From Oxyruncus cristatus (Eukaryota; Chordata; Aves; Passeriformes; Cotingidae), in contig VXAY01007011.1 of assembly GCA_013399855.1 (NCBI GenBank), positions 217,389 through 281,388 of the forward strand: a stretch of 64,000 nucleotides of DNA, written 5' to 3'. Positions 7,492 through 44,775 of this stretch are shown piece by piece (within the stretch, counting starts at the first letter, position 1; each line of letters opens with the position of its first letter). A program made the position numbers and the translations under genes. Under the pieces are notes generated by a model, which saw only the letters and a program-made list of their open reading frames with translations, was not told the origin of the DNA and ran no database searches.

Positions 7492-8429
7492 CCCGCCATT
7501 CGTTAATACAGTACATTGTCTGTTTGATTTTTTTCACAGCAGTTAGACATCCTTCAATTTAACATCACTGACTGCACTATTGGATAGTCTTAATCTAAGT
7601 TTGCTGCTGAACATGTTTCAGTATCCAGAGCATTGCTCCAGAATTAAATAATTTGTAAATGGGATATGAGTGGAACTTAACAGATTATTAAGCCATCTTC
7701 CCACACTGCCATCAGACAGCGGGTATTCTGAATCAGAATTAATGTGTTTAAAACTCTATTGTAAAATGTTTAAATTCCTAACAACCTTATCATGGCCGTT
7801 ATCTAACATAACCATGGGGTGTGTGCTATGACAGACAAATACCGGCTTTGTAGGTGAGATCACACGATCAACAGATGACTTCTGCAGCAATGTTATTTCT
7901 GGATAACAGGGATAATGATCTGGAAAGAATGTGAATTTTTTGAACAGTAAATATAAATAAATTTCTTTCGACTGTGAAGCATGAATCTTAAGTTTCAAGA
8001 ACTACCATCATTGCTGTTTTTTTTAAATTTACCAATATTTCTGAAACTAACAGGTTTTTTTAATTCTTTGCTATTTCACCAATGCTGACCCATAGTTAAT
8101 ATTTATAAATGTAAAATAATATATTTTGCATTTTCTGCATGCATTCTGTTTAACAGCATTGGACTAAAACTTTCAGGAAGCACTTTAGCATGCTTAGAAA
8201 ATATACTTCATATTCTATAAAATTCTCATTCAAAATTGTTTAAGGATCAGCATGTGCTGTCCAGTTAGTCAGACTCGTAGCTTGTACTACCTTCTGCAAT
8301 GTTTGACCCAGTATTTTGGCTTTCTGCAGTGACAGGTCTCCACAGTGACATCCTGTTTGAGAAGAAAACAATTTCTTAACAATTTTTTTGCATGCACATA
8401 AGACTCTGTGTATGTACTACTTCAGTTCT

Positions 8430-9290
8430 ATTGAAAGCTCTGGACAGAATGCCTGCTCTGTGTAAGCCTTTTCCAGATTTCTATTTGAGTTGTTAATCAT
8501 ATTTTGCAATCTAGGAGACCTGCCTGCAAAACCCTTTCAGCAATTGTCACTATTGACTTGTGATCAGTTCCTGCTAGTGCTGGTATTCCATATAAAAACA
8601 ATGAATGTTTTTTGTATGCATGGACTACAGACAAAGCCTCCGATTCTTTTTGTGCATGCTGACATGCTGTTCCAGTTAGGTATCCAGAAGCATATGCCAT
8701 GGGTCTCCAGTGATCACCATTCCTTGTTAAAAGTGTTGCCCCAAGGCCTTGCTTAGAAGCATCAACCGCCAGCTTTGTTTGGTGCTTATTATCATACACT
8801 CTGAGGACAGGTTCCTTCTTTATCAACTATTTGAGATTCAGGAAGTCCCTGTTGTGATTACCAGTCCATGCCCATTATGCATTTTTAGACGCTCTAAAGA
8901 CCTTCAGACAGCAGTTTAAATGGTTTAGAGCTGTTTGAAAATAAAGTCCCCAACAAAATTTGCCTTTTCTTTAAGTTTCTGTATGTCTCTTTTATGTATG
9001 TATAAGGACATATTAGTAATCAGACCTATTTGCATCCCCTACTAAGCTTTTTTTTTTTTTCCCTGCTGCAGTTTCCTAAGTTGATTGTTTCTTTAACCTT
9101 GAACTCACATTTTTGTGTTCTGCATTTCAGTCTCCTAATTTGAATCCCTTCCAGGAGCCTACCAGAGCCTCCAATTGCAACATTTTTCTATTATTCTTCT
9201 CCTCATCTTGCCCCATGGTTTCCTTTCAATTATTTTGTATTTGTGGGAAATATTTGAGATTTTAAAAAGCATTTTCTAAATATTGTGGTA
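8430..9290 (-). mobile_element. Ty3/Gypsy-type pol remnant (RT end to RNase H)
   Basis: A degraded retrotransposon polymerase piece on the minus strand. The best part is an open frame at 8497-8826 (109 codons) with the Gypsy-family RNase H layout: PVLRVYD, then DASKQGLGA, WRPMAYAS, QKESEAL and TDHK. By family knowledge D22, E61 and D88 of this frame correspond to three acidic catalytic residues. Upstream, in another frame with several stops (8905-9030), is a segment containing NFVGDFI, like the RT-RNase H connection. Further up (about 9075-9117) is QKCEFKVKE, like the end of the RT palm/thumb. Weaker similarity reaches about 9290. Downstream of TDHK the frame shifts near 8540-8545 and continues in another frame to about 8430. 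The RT YxDD motif is not visible, and no gag, integrase or LTR is recognised. It is a dead fragment. Intact Ty3/Gypsy elements are scarce in birds, so an old amniote relic or a horizontally acquired copy are both open. Confidence 0.8.
8497..8826 (-). pseudogene. RNase H-domain open frame of the Gypsy remnant
   Basis: A 109-codon uninterrupted frame within the larger remnant. It covers the end of the connection region and most of the RNase H fold: first acidic residue in DASKQGLGA, second in the QKESEAL helix, third in TDHK. The ATG is only an internal methionine and not a plausible native start, because homologous sequence continues upstream beyond stops. The last 15 or so residues before the stop no longer resemble the family, because the reading frame shifts close to 8540. 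No promoter or splice sites suggest a domesticated gene, although an open frame of this length inside a decayed copy is worth noting. Confidence 0.7.
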
Positions 9291-9799
9291 AACTAAGGGC
9301 TTCTAAATGGTGCATTAAAATTGCACAGATGTGAGAGATGAGCCTTTTTTTTTTTCTAGGGGACCCTGTCAGTACAGAGTGGGTCAGTACATCCAGGGGT
9401 CCCCAGAAACAATTCCCCAGCTAGGGATTTGTGGGATTTGTTTCCCCTTTTTCCATGCTTTTTTCCTCAGACTGCCAGCCGCAGGGAAGTACTAATTTTT
9501 CTTTTCCGTAATTATTGTGGAATAAAGTAATTTTGGAACCTCTCTGTTAGTTTTCATTATATCCAACTTGGCCAGAATAATTCTTCCAATTTTTCATTTC
9601 AGCTCCAGAGAGAGATTTCTAGGAACATCTATGTCAGGACAACTGATTCAGTCATTCTTACTTTATGTTTTTGTTGGCTTTCTTTGGCAACATTTAAAAC
9701 ATCTGGAAAACAATCTGCCAACTTATGAGCTGCTGTCCTTCCAAGGAATGTACTCCCTGAACCGTCAGTAGGTCAGAGATATTTGCAACACGAGAGTAG

Positions 9800-9900
9800 G
9801 TACTCCATTTTTGGCAACAGTTATACAGTGTATGTGCTAAAGCTCCTGCTTACAAGAAGCTCACAGTGAAAGAAGCACAATTTCCTCATCTATGCAATAG
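9800..9900 (-). mobile_element. Old L2-like LINE 3' tail (weak)
   Basis: On the plus strand, TGTGCTAAAGCTCCTGCTTA followed by ACAAGAAGCTCACAGTGAAA resembles the reverse complement of the amniote LINE 3' tail whose plus-strand form reads TTGTAAGCTC, then GGGGCAGGGACTGTC, then TGTACAGC. The similarity is partial and was judged by eye only; it could be a MIR/L2-type terminal piece of either class. Confidence 0.35.
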
Positions 9901-9904
9901 AAGT

Positions 9905-12900
9905 TATATGTGTGTGCTTAAGATAACTAACATTTATTTTCACTTTCTTTTCTTTCATATCGTTTGCAATTATTTGTATGATTTCTCCCAAAGTCACCAT
10001 TAGAATTTTGTGGTGTATTCTTCCTGCTTTATTTTTCTCCACAACTGCATGTTGCTGTAGACTCACAGTTTGCAAAATAATTTTGCTCATTTTCATATTC
10101 TGAAGTCTGGTCTGGTTCTTTTCTGCAGTTAGGTAAAACACAAACAATTTTTCCAGCTTCATGTTGAGATCTTCTAGCCCGAGGTCTCTGATACCCACTG
10201 TCATCTTGTCCCAAGGCAAGGATAGCACACGCCTCCAAAACAGTATTTCTGATTCAATCTCAACTCTATTGAAAACACTTCAGGAGTATTACTCTTTTTA
10301 TTTACATGTTGCTAATCTCAGAAAGTTCATGCTTCCTGGGGTTTAAACTTCTTCATAAGGTCACTATTCCTAAATCAGCTCTCCTATTTTGCTGTATTGA
10401 ACACATAACAACGTTTTGGTCACCGTTCTCTTCCTCCTGCTATTATGAATTAGATTTATCTTTTTTTTTATCATTTCATTTTTGAGAGCATAAACTGTTC
10501 TGGAGTTCTTAGTTTCATATTAGCCTTTTGCTACCTTGTCTCCTCTTCCTTCTTCTGCTTTTCCTTCCCCTTTTGCTCCTCTTTTTCCTCCTTCTGTTTT
10601 TTCTTCCAAATTCTGTTCTGAGATGATGATTAACAAGGGACTCTGGGAGAGAACTTGTAAAATACCAGCCATTCATATGGTAGGTGAGCAACCATTATAG
10701 AGAAGGGCTTGAAAATGAAAAAGAGAGAGCTCTGCATCTTTCTTTGGCTGCTAATCAATGAACAACAGATGTGACATTTCAGCCTTTCATGCAGAAGCAA
10801 CTTCAGGGTTTGCTCTTTTAACGAAATAGTTGCCTGGAGATTCTTTTGCGCTGCTCTGAATTTCTGAGAAGACACAGCTTGCTGCAACATTTTTTATCTT
10901 CTGCTTATGAGTTTGCATTGTCTGTGCTTTGGAGAGGAACTGGCAAAAAATGTTTCTCTTCTTTATTCCAAGCCAATGATATACATGTACATAATAACTT
11001 AATGAAAAATAATTTTAATATTGAAATAGATAGTGAAGCTTTTAACTGCCATATATCTCCAGAAGATAAAAAAGAATATTTGTTGAGTCAAGGAACATCC
11101 CTATTAATAAATGGTGCTCTTTTTCTGGATTATGACCTTTTTTGATTGCCGCTCTATAGTGAAACATAACCTTATTGAATTTGTAAAACACCTCTGTAAC
11201 TACCATGACTCATTGGAGACCATGAAATCACTCTGTGACCTTCCAAGTCTCCCACAAATATGAAGAACAATAATTTCAAAATAGGCAGTGCAATAATTTT
11301 AAAGTACCGATTTGCAACATTCGGAATGAAAAACTGTGTGTGAAAACAGATACAAAAGGCTTCGGACGGCAGTAAACTACACAGCAAATCTGTCAGCTTT
11401 TGTTGCTGGATGATGAATTATTCTTCAACCTGTGTCTGTCAGTTCCTTCTGGGTTTTGTTCCATGCCTCTACTCTACATGCTGCGGGTTGCTTTTACTTT
11501 TCATTTGAAGTATATATTACTGGGCAGTAAACAATGAACTGTAAGTCCATATATTTAACTTTTTATTTTGAAACTTCAGCTGGTCAAAAATGTTGGCTGA
11601 AAAATAATTTTCTCTAAAGAATGAGGTTTTGTCAGAAAATGCTTTTTCATGGGAAAATAGAATTTAATCACCTTTTCCTTTTATTTTTCAGTGGCAAGGT
11701 CTATGAGGAAAGTAAGTGAAGTTTCAATTTCTGTTTCTTGTTTTGCTTCAACTTCAAATTCAAACTGTGTTTGTTTACTTTTAAATGTCTTGCAAAATAG
11801 TTTCTATAAAATTTCTCAACCGGTTTTATCTAAAAGGTAGGAGGTGCTGCGAGGATGGCAGTGGCACAGCATGTTTGGTTCTGTTCAAATACTGCTCCAG
11901 TTGGACAATTTCTTTAGCTCCATTGAATGGTGGCTTTAAATGAAGACCCATGAGATAGGGTAGAGGATATGCCCAGGAGAAGGCATTGGCTCTTAGAAAG
12001 AGGCAGACAGCAACTCTCAGGTAGGCAAAATCTCTGTGACAATAGCAGTGCAGTAAGCTGTGTTCACAGAGCTGCTGTGGGTGCTTGCCAGCACCAAAGG
12101 CAGCACTGCTGGTACTGTGGGACCACAGAAGGTCTGCTGAGACATCATGTGGCTGAAGTTGCTCTGGTTGGCTAAGTTGGTATACTTAATGCAGACAAAA
12201 GAACAAATACTGTGAAACTGGATAATGATTTCTATTAAAAATTTACATTTATCCCTGCTTCTTTAGAGTAAAGCTGACATTCAAGTCTCCTTGTCTGTCC
12301 TGTTCCTACAACATGAGGTGACTAATTTACCAATACATGGCATTCTTCCTCTGATCAGAGTGCCTTTCCTTCTTTCTCCCGTCTTACTAGAATCCCCAAG
12401 CCCAGTCAATCTTATGGTATTTTGTTGCTCAAGTGTCTTAAAAGCAGTGAGAAGGTTCTTCTACTGCTGGACACACATTTACAGTCTTCATTTGACCACC
12501 ACCTTCTCCTCTCCACCTAAAAGGCATAGCTCTCAGTCATGCTAATGTGAGACACACTTCAATGCTAATTAAAGAGAACATTAACCAGTGTCTATATTTG
12601 ACAGTACTAATCACATCCATCATGTACAGATGTGACAGTGCTATCAGTATCAGGGATCAGATACTCTCTTTAGTGTATCTTTTACATCTTTTTAGTGAAA
12701 TAAAGGTTCTTTTCACTGACAGCTTCCAGCGCTGATAGCATACTCTTCTAGATCCTAGAAGAGGAGTCATCTCTTCTATTCCAACTTTTAGAACACACAG
12801 TTTTGGCTATTAATAAGCATGTTGTATTTCTAACTATAGAAACTCAACTGCAATGCAATGAAGTCATTGCTCTGCTTGTTCTACTACTTGCTAGCCCTTT

Positions 12901-17484: not shown

Positions 17485-18068
17485 AAATAGACTATTTCAA
17501 TTGGAAGTGACCTATAACAATTACTTAGTCCAACTGCCAGGCCACTTCAGAGCTGACCAAAAAAGAAAGCATGTTATTAAGGGCATTGTCTAAACCCCTC
17601 TTAAACATTGAGAGAGTCTTGGGGCCTCAGTCATCTCTCTAAGAAGCCTGTTCCAGTGTTTGACCACCCTCTTGGTAAAGAAAAGCTTCCTAATGTTCAG
17701 ACTAAACTTTCCCGGCACAGCTTTGAACCAGTCCCACTCATCACTGTATCCCAGAAAGGAATGCTCAGCACCTCCCTCTCCATTTTCCCTCTCAGCAACC
17801 TGAAGAGAGCAATACTAATACTCCTTTTCAAACCAGACAAGACCAAAGTCCTCAGCTGCTCCCTGTCAGACATTCCTTCCAGGCCTTTCACCAGCTTTAT
17901 TGCCCTCTTCTGGATGCATTCAAGGACCTTCCCATTCTTCTTAAATTGTGGGGTCCAGAACTGCACACAGTGCTGAAGTTGAGATTGCACCAGTACTGAA
18001 TACAGTGGGATAATCACCAGCTGATCAATGCTAAGTTTGAGGCACCTCAGGACATGTAGTCCAGGCAT
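17485..18068 (-). mobile_element. CR1: CR1 LINE fragment with RT C-terminal coding remnant
   Basis: A minus-strand CR1 copy of about 580 bp. At the left is the 3' end (plus strand TTGGAAGTGACCTATAACAA, then AGTCCAACTGCC); the block CTGTTCCAGTGTTTGACCAC follows. The minus strand at 17697-18068 is open for 123 codons and holds the C-terminal region of CR1 ORF2, with LYSVLVQSQLQHCVQFWTP and CIQKRAIKLVKGLE, a pattern typical of the end of CR1-clade reverse transcriptase. The catalytic core and endonuclease are absent through 5' truncation. Divergence from common avian copies looks considerable, so this is an older insertion. It is not a host gene. Confidence 0.9.
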
Positions 18069-18069
18069 G

Positions 18070-19650
18070 GGAATGGGAAAGTACAGTGAAGAGATGGAAT
18101 GAAAGAAGATAAATGCAGGTTAGGAAAATTTGGGAATAGAAACATTCATCTCTGTCTGTGCTGTCTCCATACTGTGAAGGAAGGAGTAGGAAGGCACTAC
18201 CTAGACACCACACTCCAAGACTAGCAGTCCACAGTTCAGGTCTCTCCCTCACCAGTGAAGCAATCAGTGTAAAATTTATCTCCCGTGTCAAAACTTGGGA
18301 TAGCGTTTAGGAAGGATCCTTCCACATGCTGTCAGTGTCACCATGATCTAGGTACATGTGAGGATCTTGACACCTAGGAAGAGGCAGCATAGTGCTTACC
18401 CTGAAGAAGTTCATCAGAACCACTAGAAAATAAAAAGAACAACTCATGCACTTAACCTATGGCCTAGGGTCCAGAATTGAACTGTGCACAGTATCTGCTT
18501 AAAAGCTCATTTCCCCAAATTAATAACATCTTTAATCCCGGTCTTAAAGCTGTGCAGAAACAACATAGCAAAACATGAGCCCAAGAATATCACAGGTAAA
18601 GGCTCCAATTTGTGGGCCACAGATCAATTTTGTGGACATAAAATCTAGCAAAAGTCCTATGCTCCAAGTGTGGCAGAGAGCATAAGCAAAATTAAAACAG
18701 AACTTACTGCTTAACACAGCAGACAGAGGAGAGGCACCTCAGTAAGGTGAATGAGCGGAGAGATTTCAGCATTTTCAGGCCATTTTAGGTGCACCATGTC
18801 TCACCTAACCACTTGCCCCACCACTTGCAGTAGGAGGTTTCTCCCAGGGAAGGCATCAGGGACACTGAGAGAGAAGTGGAAGTGCAGGCACCTACTCTGA
18901 GAATAGTAACTAACCTAATTTTGTCCTGAATGAATCTCACTCAAAATCACTAGATGAATTCCCTAAGCCCTGGCAACCTAAAAATGCTACAGTAAGATAT
19001 TGTATAAGTGTTTAATGGCCCCTAAAAGCACAAGAAAGGACTGTTTTGTTTGGTTTAGGTGGCTGGGAGTTTATATGAAGGCTGGGAGCTCAGTTTAAAT
19101 GCTAATTGACTCATAAACAAGCCTGAGTTAAATAAAAGAATCAACTAGCATCAGCTGAGCTAGATCAGTTTAAAAATTCAGGCTTCTGTTAATCAGAGGG
19201 AGTTTGTACTGGGATAGGCCAGGCATTGCTCCAAAAGCAGCATCAGATTAAACCTCCTACTCGAAAAACACTCATTAAAAAGCAAGTTCCATTGAAAAAG
19301 ATCCCACTTGTCGCTACCAGCCATTGTTAGGCAGTGAAACAGTGACAGATATTTTTGAAGACTATTATGGGGAAATAAATATTTATTTAGCTGTCTAAAG
19401 TAATTAATCCCCGCTGTTTCCTTTTTATGTAAGCACATAGAAGGCAAGACTGTCTTTGTACTTGAATTTTAGGAGACAAGTCTGTGTAGAGGCTCCCATG
19501 GTTTTTGAAGGCAGTAACAAATTCATGCCTAATACTTTTTATGCAACTCGAGAATGCAAACCATCAAGCAGCAATAATAGACTTTTCCTATCCTGATTCA
19601 GTGGCAGCAGGAAGGAGATATACTAAAGGGGAAGAACAGAGAGAAGAAAG
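18070..19650. other. Non-coding stretch, no gene recognised
   Basis: Unique sequence with short open frames of no recognisable family and no clear mobile element. Confidence 0.55.
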
Positions 19651-43180: not shown

Positions 43181-43185
43181 AAAGA

Positions 43186-43257
43186 GGGCAGAAACACACA
43201 GCTGGTGCTCCTTCTTCGGAAGGGCAGAAACACACAGCTGGTGCTCCTTCTTCGGAA
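43186..43257. repeat. Perfect 36-bp tandem duplication
   Basis: Two identical 36-bp units (43186-43221 and 43222-43257) begin GGGCAGAAACACACAGCTGG and end CTTCTTCGGAA. Because 36 is a multiple of three, the plus-strand frame across it repeats 12 residues (GQKHTAGAPSSE). Absence of any difference points to a recent event or an assembly duplication. Confidence 0.95.
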
Positions 43258-43450
43258 TGGCAAAGGCTGATTAAGTTTTGGCATCCTAAGTTGAATTATC
43301 AGAACATTATCATACAATATACTCCAAACATGAGCATATTGTACTAGTCTCCTAGCTTCTGCTGCTTTCAATGAAGGGAGAAAAGTTATTTAATTTTTTT
43401 GACCATTGGACTCCAGAAATCCTAGATATCTGAAGATGTGCAGCAGAGGA

Positions 43451-43489: not shown

Positions 43490-44540
43490 ACTATAAAAAT
43501 ACAAGTAAATAAGCATTGACTGTGGGACCAATGAAACTCTACTCTCATCTCCTTTTAGCAGTGTTTGATAGCTTTCACGGTGCTCCGTCACCAATATGTA
43601 GCAATACCACAGCCATACAGCTTCCTACTTTATTCAAACTGAGCCTGCATCCATCCTGATGACATTTAAAACAGTATTTTTGATTACCATCTCATATGGC
43701 AAAATCTAATTTGCAGCTCACTAAATGCAATCTCTTTAACCTTATAAAGACAAGCACTATTCTGTTCCCATTCAAACCCTCCTTATGAATTCACTCCTTT
43801 GAGGCTTACACATTTAACAGGTGAAAAGTTACAAGAGAGAGAAAACAAAATGTATCACGGAACTCCTTTCTCTGAGTTTCTCATGGCATGTCAGAGAATA
43901 CCAGAAAATAAGATTCCAAAGGTCCTTGAGGGGACAGCAAATCCTTTGGCCCAATTGAGCTGCGTATTAAACTTCCTTCTTAAAATTTCCTCTTTGCAGT
44001 GCTTAGCTCTCAAGATACCAGAAAAAAATGTTCTGTCTTCTTGTTGCAGTGTTAGGGCTTTTTTCATTTTTATAGAGGGCAGAGTATAATTTAAGCCCAT
44101 GAAAATAGAGCTACCATCAGTAGATTCTCTAAGTATCTGTGCTTCCCAAGGGCTTCCTTTCTATTAGACTTTTTTCAATTTCATCATGATTTTTCTTCAA
44201 CGTTAACAAATACTTAGGTAGATACTAACACTTTTATCCCTTGAACTTGTTAAGACAGGGTTTTAGTCCTTCATCCATATTATTTTCAATCGGTATGCAA
44301 AAGTTTTCCAAATTTAGAAACATTTGGAAATGCAATTAATGCTACTTTCCCTTACTTCTAAATAGAGAAGACAAATGCTAAATAAGATCTAGATAAAACA
44401 GAACCCTTAATTCTCAGTTATTCTGTAGGTAATTCATAAATTTCTTAAAGCTACAGTTCAAGAATTTTAGAATATTGAGGGGTTTCTATTCTAAAGCTTC
44501 CCACTACATAAATTTTACAAGAGTACAGAGCTCTTCTAAA
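43490..44540. other. Non-coding stretch, no gene recognised
   Basis: Unique AT-rich sequence. No gene or element recognised. Confidence 0.55.
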
Positions 44541-44544
44541 CGTT

Positions 44545-44775
44545 TCAGGTCAGATGCCCCAAAATGGGGACACTGGAACAGGATCCCCAGAGAAGTGGTC
44601 ACAGCACCAAACCTGTTGGAGTTCAAGAAGCATTTGGACAAGCCGTCAGGCACATGGTGTGATTCTTGGAGTGTCCTGTACAGGGCCAGGAGTTGTACTC
44701 AATGATCCTGATGGGTCCCTTCCAACTCATTGGATTCAGTTGAATACAACTCAGTGTATTCTATGATTCTATGAA
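44545..44775 (+). mobile_element. CR1: CR1 LINE fragment, 3' end
   Basis: Plus-strand CR1 tail of about 230 bp: GGAACAGGATCCCCAGAGAA, GTGGTCACAGCACCAAACCT, GTTGGAGTTCAAGAAGCATT, CAATGATCCTGATGGGTCCC, ending ATTCTATGATTCTATGA, the CR1 terminal repeat. It is 5'-truncated. The terminal repeat type (ATTCTATG) differs from the copy at 25.5 kb (GATTCTGT), so they come from different subfamilies or ages. Confidence 0.92.

What the first reader, a model, noticed from the sequence alone, without database searches (positions are those of the whole stretch)
8430..9290. Ty3/Gypsy-type pol remnant in an apparently avian genome
The minus strand carries the order RT end (QKCEFKVKE), connection (NFVGDFI), RNase H (DASKQGLGA, WRPMAYAS, QKESEAL, TDHK) over about 0.85 kb and in at least three frames, the pattern expected of a decayed Gypsy pol. 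Seen: motifs and their order. Known: Ty3/Gypsy elements are scarce in birds, whose LTR elements are mostly ERVs. Inferred: either an old amniote relic (like the Gypsy remnants of mammals) or a lineage-specific acquisition.
Basis: partly seen in the sequence, partly recalled or inferred. Interest (0 to 1): 0.75.

Follow-up and report, generated by a model that had tools for sequence, protein, structure and literature searches.

The report
Conserved Gypsy retrotransposon fossil in birds
A long-dead piece of a Gypsy-type jumping gene sits in this bird genome, and a stretch of about 144 bases inside it appears to have been kept almost unchanged in other genomes, probably other birds, as if the host reused it, perhaps as a gene switch.

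Summary
Window 8500-8826 (-) is a 109-codon open frame with a Ty3/Gypsy-type RNase H domain (Pfam E 8e-16 and 4e-15; nearest solved structure Ty3). RT-end and connection motifs lie upstream in two other frames; no profile supports those two pieces. The host is very probably a bird. The DNA search found no second copy; the protein search found six degenerate kin at 30-44% identity. That fits an old vertical relic, not a recent invader. Five protein clusters from unnamed contigs match it. They keep residues 11-58 (window 8653-8796) with 0-3 changes of 48; what could be aligned beyond is in other frames or differs at 18-41% of residues. A chance open frame 1.07 kb away, probably on the same contigs as one cluster, differs by 22-25%. 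I read this as an ancient Gypsy pol relic whose RNase H core was exapted, most likely as a conserved non-coding element, a kind of fossil described by Frith (2022) in human and reptiles. Protein-level use is not excluded, because the relatives' DNA could not be fetched. New member of a known kind.

The parts
8500..8826 (-). 109-codon open frame, Ty3/Gypsy-type RNase H domain
   Evidence: PF17919 E 7.9e-16, PF17917 E 4.4e-15; Ty3 in PDB E 0.0038
8653..8796 (-). conserved core (residues 11-58): 0-3 differences of 48 residues in each of five relatives; limits drawn after seeing the data
8587..8868 (-). full extent of the PF17919 profile match, crossing one in-frame stop
   Evidence: (C2059:225975-226256, 71.1 bits, 1 TAG), converted to window coordinates
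8827..8829 (-). in-frame TAG directly before the open frame; one sign that pol is dead
   Evidence: kin L002 reads LKDLIKEAPVL where the window reads LK*LIKKEPVL
8928..9038 (-). stop-free piece with the connection-like motif NFVGDFI (8940-8960), another frame
   Evidence: motif and position only; no PDB hit at E<=10
9026..9187 (-). stop-free piece with the RT-end-like motif QKCEFKVKE (9089-9115), third frame (coordinates include its stop codon)
   Evidence: motif and position only; no Pfam hit, no PDB hit
8430..8480 (-). possible end of RNase H (K-GK-LHRA-ILSRAF-like), in the frame of the connection piece
   Evidence: read by eye; relic L007 has a comparable ADTLSKL stretch (E 7, not significant)
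9893..10279 (-). chance 129-codon frame used as control for regional divergence; not claimed to belong to the element
   Evidence: no Pfam hit at E<=1; relatives P0006, P0007 at 73-76% identity over 59% and 48% of it

Best explanation
This is the remnant of one ancient Ty3/Gypsy insertion in the ancestry of birds. Shown: Gypsy-type RNase H; pol broken by frame changes and stops; no other DNA copy found in the genome; close relatives of this frame in other sequence sets; and residue differences concentrated outside a core of about 144 bp (8653-8796). Inferred: the relatives are the same locus in other birds, the copy was already dead in their common ancestor, and the core has since been held by purifying selection on the host, most likely as a conserved non-coding element such as an enhancer or other factor-binding platform. 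An RNase H enzyme is unlikely, because three of five relatives leave the frame before the TDHK part of the active site, each at a different place.
For: Identity. Age and copy number: the 1 match is the window itself; 6 other matches, 30-44% identity, each with 1-3 stops. Host: 1.037 Gb and 44 PF02422 keratin matches. Relatives: 5 matches among 8 candidates, the same 5 among 1632 candidates with a profile. Core against rest: differences in residues 11-58 are 2, 1, 3, 0 and 0 of 48 for P0001-P0005. Outside the core: 9 of 39, 7 of 39 and 6 of 15 for P0001-P0003. P0004 and P0005 leave the frame after residues 66 and 60, and the alignable parts of their tails differ at 7 of 19 and 7 of 17 from the window's other-frame translations (Fisher p 2.5e-5 and 2.2e-5 against 0 of 56 and 0 of 50 in frame). 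Window, P0001 and P0002 have no variable column in residues 11-48 although 12 of 87 columns vary (scan p 0.006). Control frame 1.07 kb away: 16 of 63 (P0007) and 16 of 74 plus 2 indels (P0006). P0007 (22 contigs, longest 10388) and P0002 (21 contigs, longest 10394) probably come from the same contigs, which would support orthology; P0002 core against P0007 flank p 0.0005. Precedent: Frith 2022 (PMC9004415; abstract, sections 8, 9 part 1 and 10, and passages read) reports 4 pre-tetrapod and 83 further pre-amniote Gypsy protein fossils in human, with strong conservation and often in gene deserts or large introns.
Against: The relatives' DNA could not be obtained, so silent changes were not counted, and species and orthology are inferred. 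Core limits were drawn after seeing the data. The tails are short, and their other-frame alignments were chosen by a local aligner; residues that did not align were left out of the counts. In P0002 alone, core against tail is only p 0.02. The five relatives are not independent of each other. The control frame also has a difference-free run of 21 residues (P0007), so slow patches occur nearby. Relic L009 too keeps its N-terminal half better than its C-terminal half to the eye (shown there as L004). Hits are found through shared five-residue words, which favours conserved copies, although that would hardly produce 0 differences in 50-56 residues beside 37-41% differences. No chromatin, expression or synteny evidence. 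The exon scans over 264 kb had no positive control, so they do not prove a gene desert.
Confidence: 0.6

Rival explanations
1. Protein-level exaptation: the N-terminal half of the RNase H is kept as an exon or small protein, for example as a nucleic-acid-binding or dominant-negative fragment.
For: The constrained stretch is measured in amino acids, and P0001 and P0002 stay in frame to residue 97. P0001 and P0003 begin where the window frame begins, compatible with a conserved start or boundary.
Against: P0003-P0005 leave the frame at different places after residues 60-73. An in-frame stop precedes the frame in the window. By eye there is no strong donor at the core's end, and the scans for splice-flanked coding exons listed 1 and 2 candidates in 264 kb, none of them inside the window.
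Confidence: 0.17
2. Plain neutral relic: the apparent core is chance plus ascertainment through the word-based search.
For: Few relatives, short tails, post hoc limits; a difference-free run of 21 residues also occurs in the control frame.
Against: 0 of 56 and 0 of 50 in-frame differences beside tails at 7 of 19 and 7 of 17 (p about 2e-5 each), and the scan test on three in-frame sequences p 0.006. The control frame, probably from the same contigs as P0002, differs by 25%.
Confidence: 0.18
3. Lineage-specific or horizontally acquired Gypsy element, inserted not long ago.
For: The RNase H still scores well, and Gypsy elements are said to be scarce in birds (recalled).
Against: No second DNA copy found in 1.04 Gb; other protein matches only at 30-44% identity, each with stops; close relatives in five clusters from other sequence sets, three leaving the frame at different places; no direct repeats of at least 30 bp in window 1-22000, though decayed LTRs would be missed.
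Confidence: 0.04
4. Endogenous retrovirus RNase H rather than Ty3/Gypsy.
For: PF17919 also rings on ERV-like loci in this genome, for example L010 with a 1223-codon frame (called ERV-like by eye).
Against: PF17917 hit, no PF00075 at E<=1, Ty3 the only retroelement among the 4 PDB matches at E<=1.
Confidence: 0.01

Closest known systems
Paleozoic Gypsy protein fossils of Frith 2022 (PMC9004415, tables 4 and 5)
   Same: Degraded Gypsy protein pieces (159-328 bp for the four in table 4), strongly conserved, taken as exapted, often in gene deserts or large introns; this frame is 327 bp.
   Different: Those were found in human and compared genomes such as alligator, turtle and frog; this one is in a bird and its age beyond birds is unknown. 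Of the four table 4 places: no protocadherin match (for PCDH19) and no FANCL match (FANCL as neighbour of VRK2 is recalled) lies on its contig, which does not exclude either place; RRAGC and URI1 were not tested.
Ty3/Gypsy RNase H (PF17917 / PF17919; Ty3 in PDB 4ol8 and 7q5b)
   Same: Domain motifs; significant profile match.
   Different: Frame breaks in the window and in three of five relatives; no active enzyme expected.
Domesticated Gypsy genes (e.g. SIRH/RTL and PNMA genes; recalled, not tested)
   Same: Gypsy-derived host sequence.
   Different: Those are intact coding genes; this has broken frames.

Membership tests
Ty3/Gypsy element (pol RNase H) | Gypsy-type RNase H domain | tested here: met
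   PF17919 8e-16, PF17917 4e-15; Ty3
Ty3/Gypsy element (pol RNase H) | Reverse transcriptase upstream in the same pol | tested here: inconclusive
   RT-end and connection motifs in order; no profile or PDB support for the pieces
Ty3/Gypsy element (pol RNase H) | Integrase downstream of RNase H | tested here: inconclusive
   the two downstream pieces scanned (8240-8416 and 7756-8001) have no Pfam hit at E<=1; genome-wide PF17921 search did not complete
Ty3/Gypsy element (pol RNase H) | Flanking LTRs | tested here: inconclusive
   no direct repeat of at least 30 bp found in window 1-22000; the tool misses pairs less than about 65% alike, as LTRs of an old relic would be
Endogenous retrovirus | Retroviral RNase H (PF00075) or env | tested here: not met
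   no PF00075 at E<=1; env was not searched for
Exapted Gypsy protein fossil (Frith type) | Derived from a TE protein, no longer a complete coding gene | tested here: met
   three frames, stops, frame breaks
Exapted Gypsy protein fossil (Frith type) | Orthologous presence in distant genomes | tested here: inconclusive
   relatives P0001-P0007; contig counts suggest P0002 and P0007 share contigs; species unknown
Exapted Gypsy protein fossil (Frith type) | Sequence conservation beyond neutral | tested here: inconclusive
   supported at protein level with post hoc core limits; DNA level not testable here
Exapted Gypsy protein fossil (Frith type) | Evidence of regulatory function | not testable with these tools
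   no chromatin or reporter data

The most novel reading that the evidence does not exclude
The 144-bp RNase H core is a bird (or archosaur or amniote) regulatory element or mini-exon made from a Gypsy polymerase. It would have been fixed before the split of the sampled birds and held nearly unchanged over 48 residues while the rest of the same domain decayed separately in several lineages.
Probability: 0.4. Interest if true: 0.55.

Novelty: new member of a known kind. Interest (0 to 1): 0.42.

Why it matters
Bird LTR retroelements are usually described as almost all ERVs (recalled). This locus, with the six weaker relics in the same genome, shows that Gypsy elements were once present in the ancestry of birds. 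It also gives a sharp test case for exaptation: the first half of an RNase H domain held nearly fixed while the second half decays. Public bird genome alignments could settle it quickly.

Tried and rejected
Direct repeats (at least 30 bp) in window 1-22000: none. Rfam (gathering threshold) and ARAGORN on the window: nothing. Relatives in viral contigs and genome contigs: 32 and 54 pattern stretches, none confirmed. NCBIfam: no hits at E<=1 for 3 of 3 proteins. Structure prediction of the frame with its five relatives: mean pLDDT 45, so no fold search was made. Home-made scans of the window plus 200 kb downstream: the list was headed by GC-rich islands; one search gave 1 and one search gave 2 exon candidates, without a positive control; the 217 kb upstream in the contig was not read. 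Synteny: none of the listed matches for protocadherins (15), FANCL (2) or homeodomains (109 listed, 150 of 199 candidates scored) lies on contig C2059; CCDC85 (PF10226) did not complete. Recent horizontal transfer and ERV origin were rejected as told under rivals. Papers touching Gypsy or LTR elements in birds (PMC5006616, PMC5486457, PMC9025612: passages only) showed nothing on this locus in the passages seen. Seven paper searches were answered; no title or abstract start that I saw in their listings describes a conserved Gypsy RNase H fossil in birds. Frith's supplement was not available.

Full report
What is there. The RNase H part is a single 109-codon open frame, 8500-8826, matching RT_RNaseH_2 (PF17919, E 7.9e-16) and RT_RNaseH (PF17917, E 4.4e-15), both well above Pfam's cut-offs. 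No classical RNase H family PF00075 appears at E<=1. Of 4 PDB matches at E<=1, the two retroelement ones are Ty3. In a whole-genome profile search the match extends to window 8587-8868, across an in-frame TAG. The RT-end and connection pieces have no profile or PDB support and rest on motif and spacing.

Host. The window lies in G000, 1.037 Gb in 2279 contigs, on C2059. The genome has 44 matches to the keratin family PF02422, which I recall as the feather-type keratins, and the window carries CR1-like frames (17700-18119 on minus, 44433-44702 on plus; recognised from memory). With that size, a bird is the likeliest host. No species name was available.

Copy number and kin. DNA 8400-9300 finds only itself in the genome (that search skips very common words). 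The protein finds 6 other places at 30-44% identity, each with 1-3 stops. I gave blast the straight frames of 7 loci; 6 matched over the RNase H: L002 (E 3e-18), L003 (9e-11), L009 (9e-9), L005 (3e-6), L006 (7e-6) and L007 (8e-5); L021 did not (E-values for this tiny set). These are deeply decayed relics; a recent invader would be expected to leave near-identical copies.

Relatives elsewhere. A search of 5.8 billion predicted proteins gave 8 candidates and 5 matches, P0001-P0005. A profile search with the six sequences gave the same 5 among 1632 candidates. They come from contigs whose longest are 1.5 to 10.4 kb, without names; I take them for bird DNA in metagenomes (inference). Residues 11-58 are nearly invariant: 2, 1, 3, 0 and 0 differences of 48 from the window for P0001 to P0005. 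Beyond that the picture changes. P0001 and P0002 stay in frame and differ at 9 of 39 and 7 of 39 (to residue 97). P0003 differs at 6 of 15 and then leaves the frame. P0004 and P0005 leave it after residues 66 and 60; the parts of their tails that align match other frames of the window with 7 of 19 and 7 of 17 differences. Left out of the counts: start residues written M, all residues of P0001 and P0002 beyond 97, the last five of P0003, and tail residues of P0004 and P0005 that did not align.

Control. To learn the regional rate I searched a chance 129-codon frame 1.07 kb away (9893-10279, minus; no Pfam hit). It gave 2 matches among 23 candidates: P0006 (73% identity over 59% of the query) and P0007 (76% over 48%; 22 contigs, longest 10388). 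P0002 has 21 contigs, longest 10394, so P0002 and P0007 probably lie on the same contigs, which would make that locus orthologous. Over the aligned parts P0007 differs at 16 of 63 and P0006 at 16 of 74 plus 2 indels; unaligned ends were left out. The core is slower than this flank (1 of 48 against 16 of 63, p 0.0005), while the tail of P0002 (7 of 39) is nearer to it.

Statistics and their limits. For window, P0001 and P0002, 12 of 87 columns vary and none lies in residues 11-48; a permutation scan gives p 0.006. For P0004 and P0005, in-frame part against tail gives p 2.5e-5 and 2.2e-5; for P0002, core against tail gives p 0.02. The core limits were set after seeing the data, the relatives are not independent, and the control frame itself has a 21-residue run without differences. 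I rate constraint on the core as likely but not proven. The open frame alone proves nothing: 28 frames of at least 109 codons exist in the window, a few through its N stretch, against a mean of 10.4 in simulations.

How it most likely works. The enzyme is very probably dead: the frame is stopped upstream in the window, and the later active-site part is lost in three of five relatives at different places. A constraint that ends within the domain, with separate frame breaks after it, fits selection on DNA (a conserved non-coding element) better than selection on a protein. Without the relatives' DNA this cannot be decided. Gene context stayed open: scans for splice-flanked coding exons in 264 kb listed 1 and 2 candidates (no positive control), and none of the listed protocadherin, FANCL or homeodomain matches lies on the contig.

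Known or new. Frith 2022 (PMC9004415; abstract, sections 8, 9 part 1 and 10, and passages read) describes Gypsy protein fossils predating tetrapods (4 in human) and amniotes (83 more), strongly conserved, often in gene deserts or large introns, and taken as exapted. The present locus is best filed as a probable bird member of that kind. I could not test whether it is orthologous to one of Frith's places, apart from finding no protocadherin and no FANCL match on its contig.

Noticed in passing
L010 (G000:C469:610143-613430): PF17919 match inside a 1223-codon open frame, ERV-like to the eye, elsewhere in this genome; not kin of the Gypsy relic.
   Followed up: no
L009 (G000:C271:427266-430529): Another Gypsy-type RNase H relic scoring higher on PF17919 (80.9 bits) than the window copy (71.1) despite two in-frame TAG stops; may be a second conserved fossil.
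   Followed up: no
window 10097-10177, minus strand: In the control frame, the stretch LEDLN...RLQN (27 residues) has one difference between window and P0007 and one between window and P0006, although both differ by 22-25% overall; possibly a second constrained patch.
   Followed up: partly
window 43185-43262: 36-bp unit repeated 2.2 times at 97% match, open in one frame on each strand.
   Followed up: no
window 17700-18119 (-) and 44433-44702 (+): CR1 LINE-like open frames (recognised from memory).
   Followed up: no
L031-L050, numbered on from the window's first base: about 204480-204750, 235760-236180 and 252600-253130: GC-rich islands downstream of the window that may mark gene starts.
   Followed up: no
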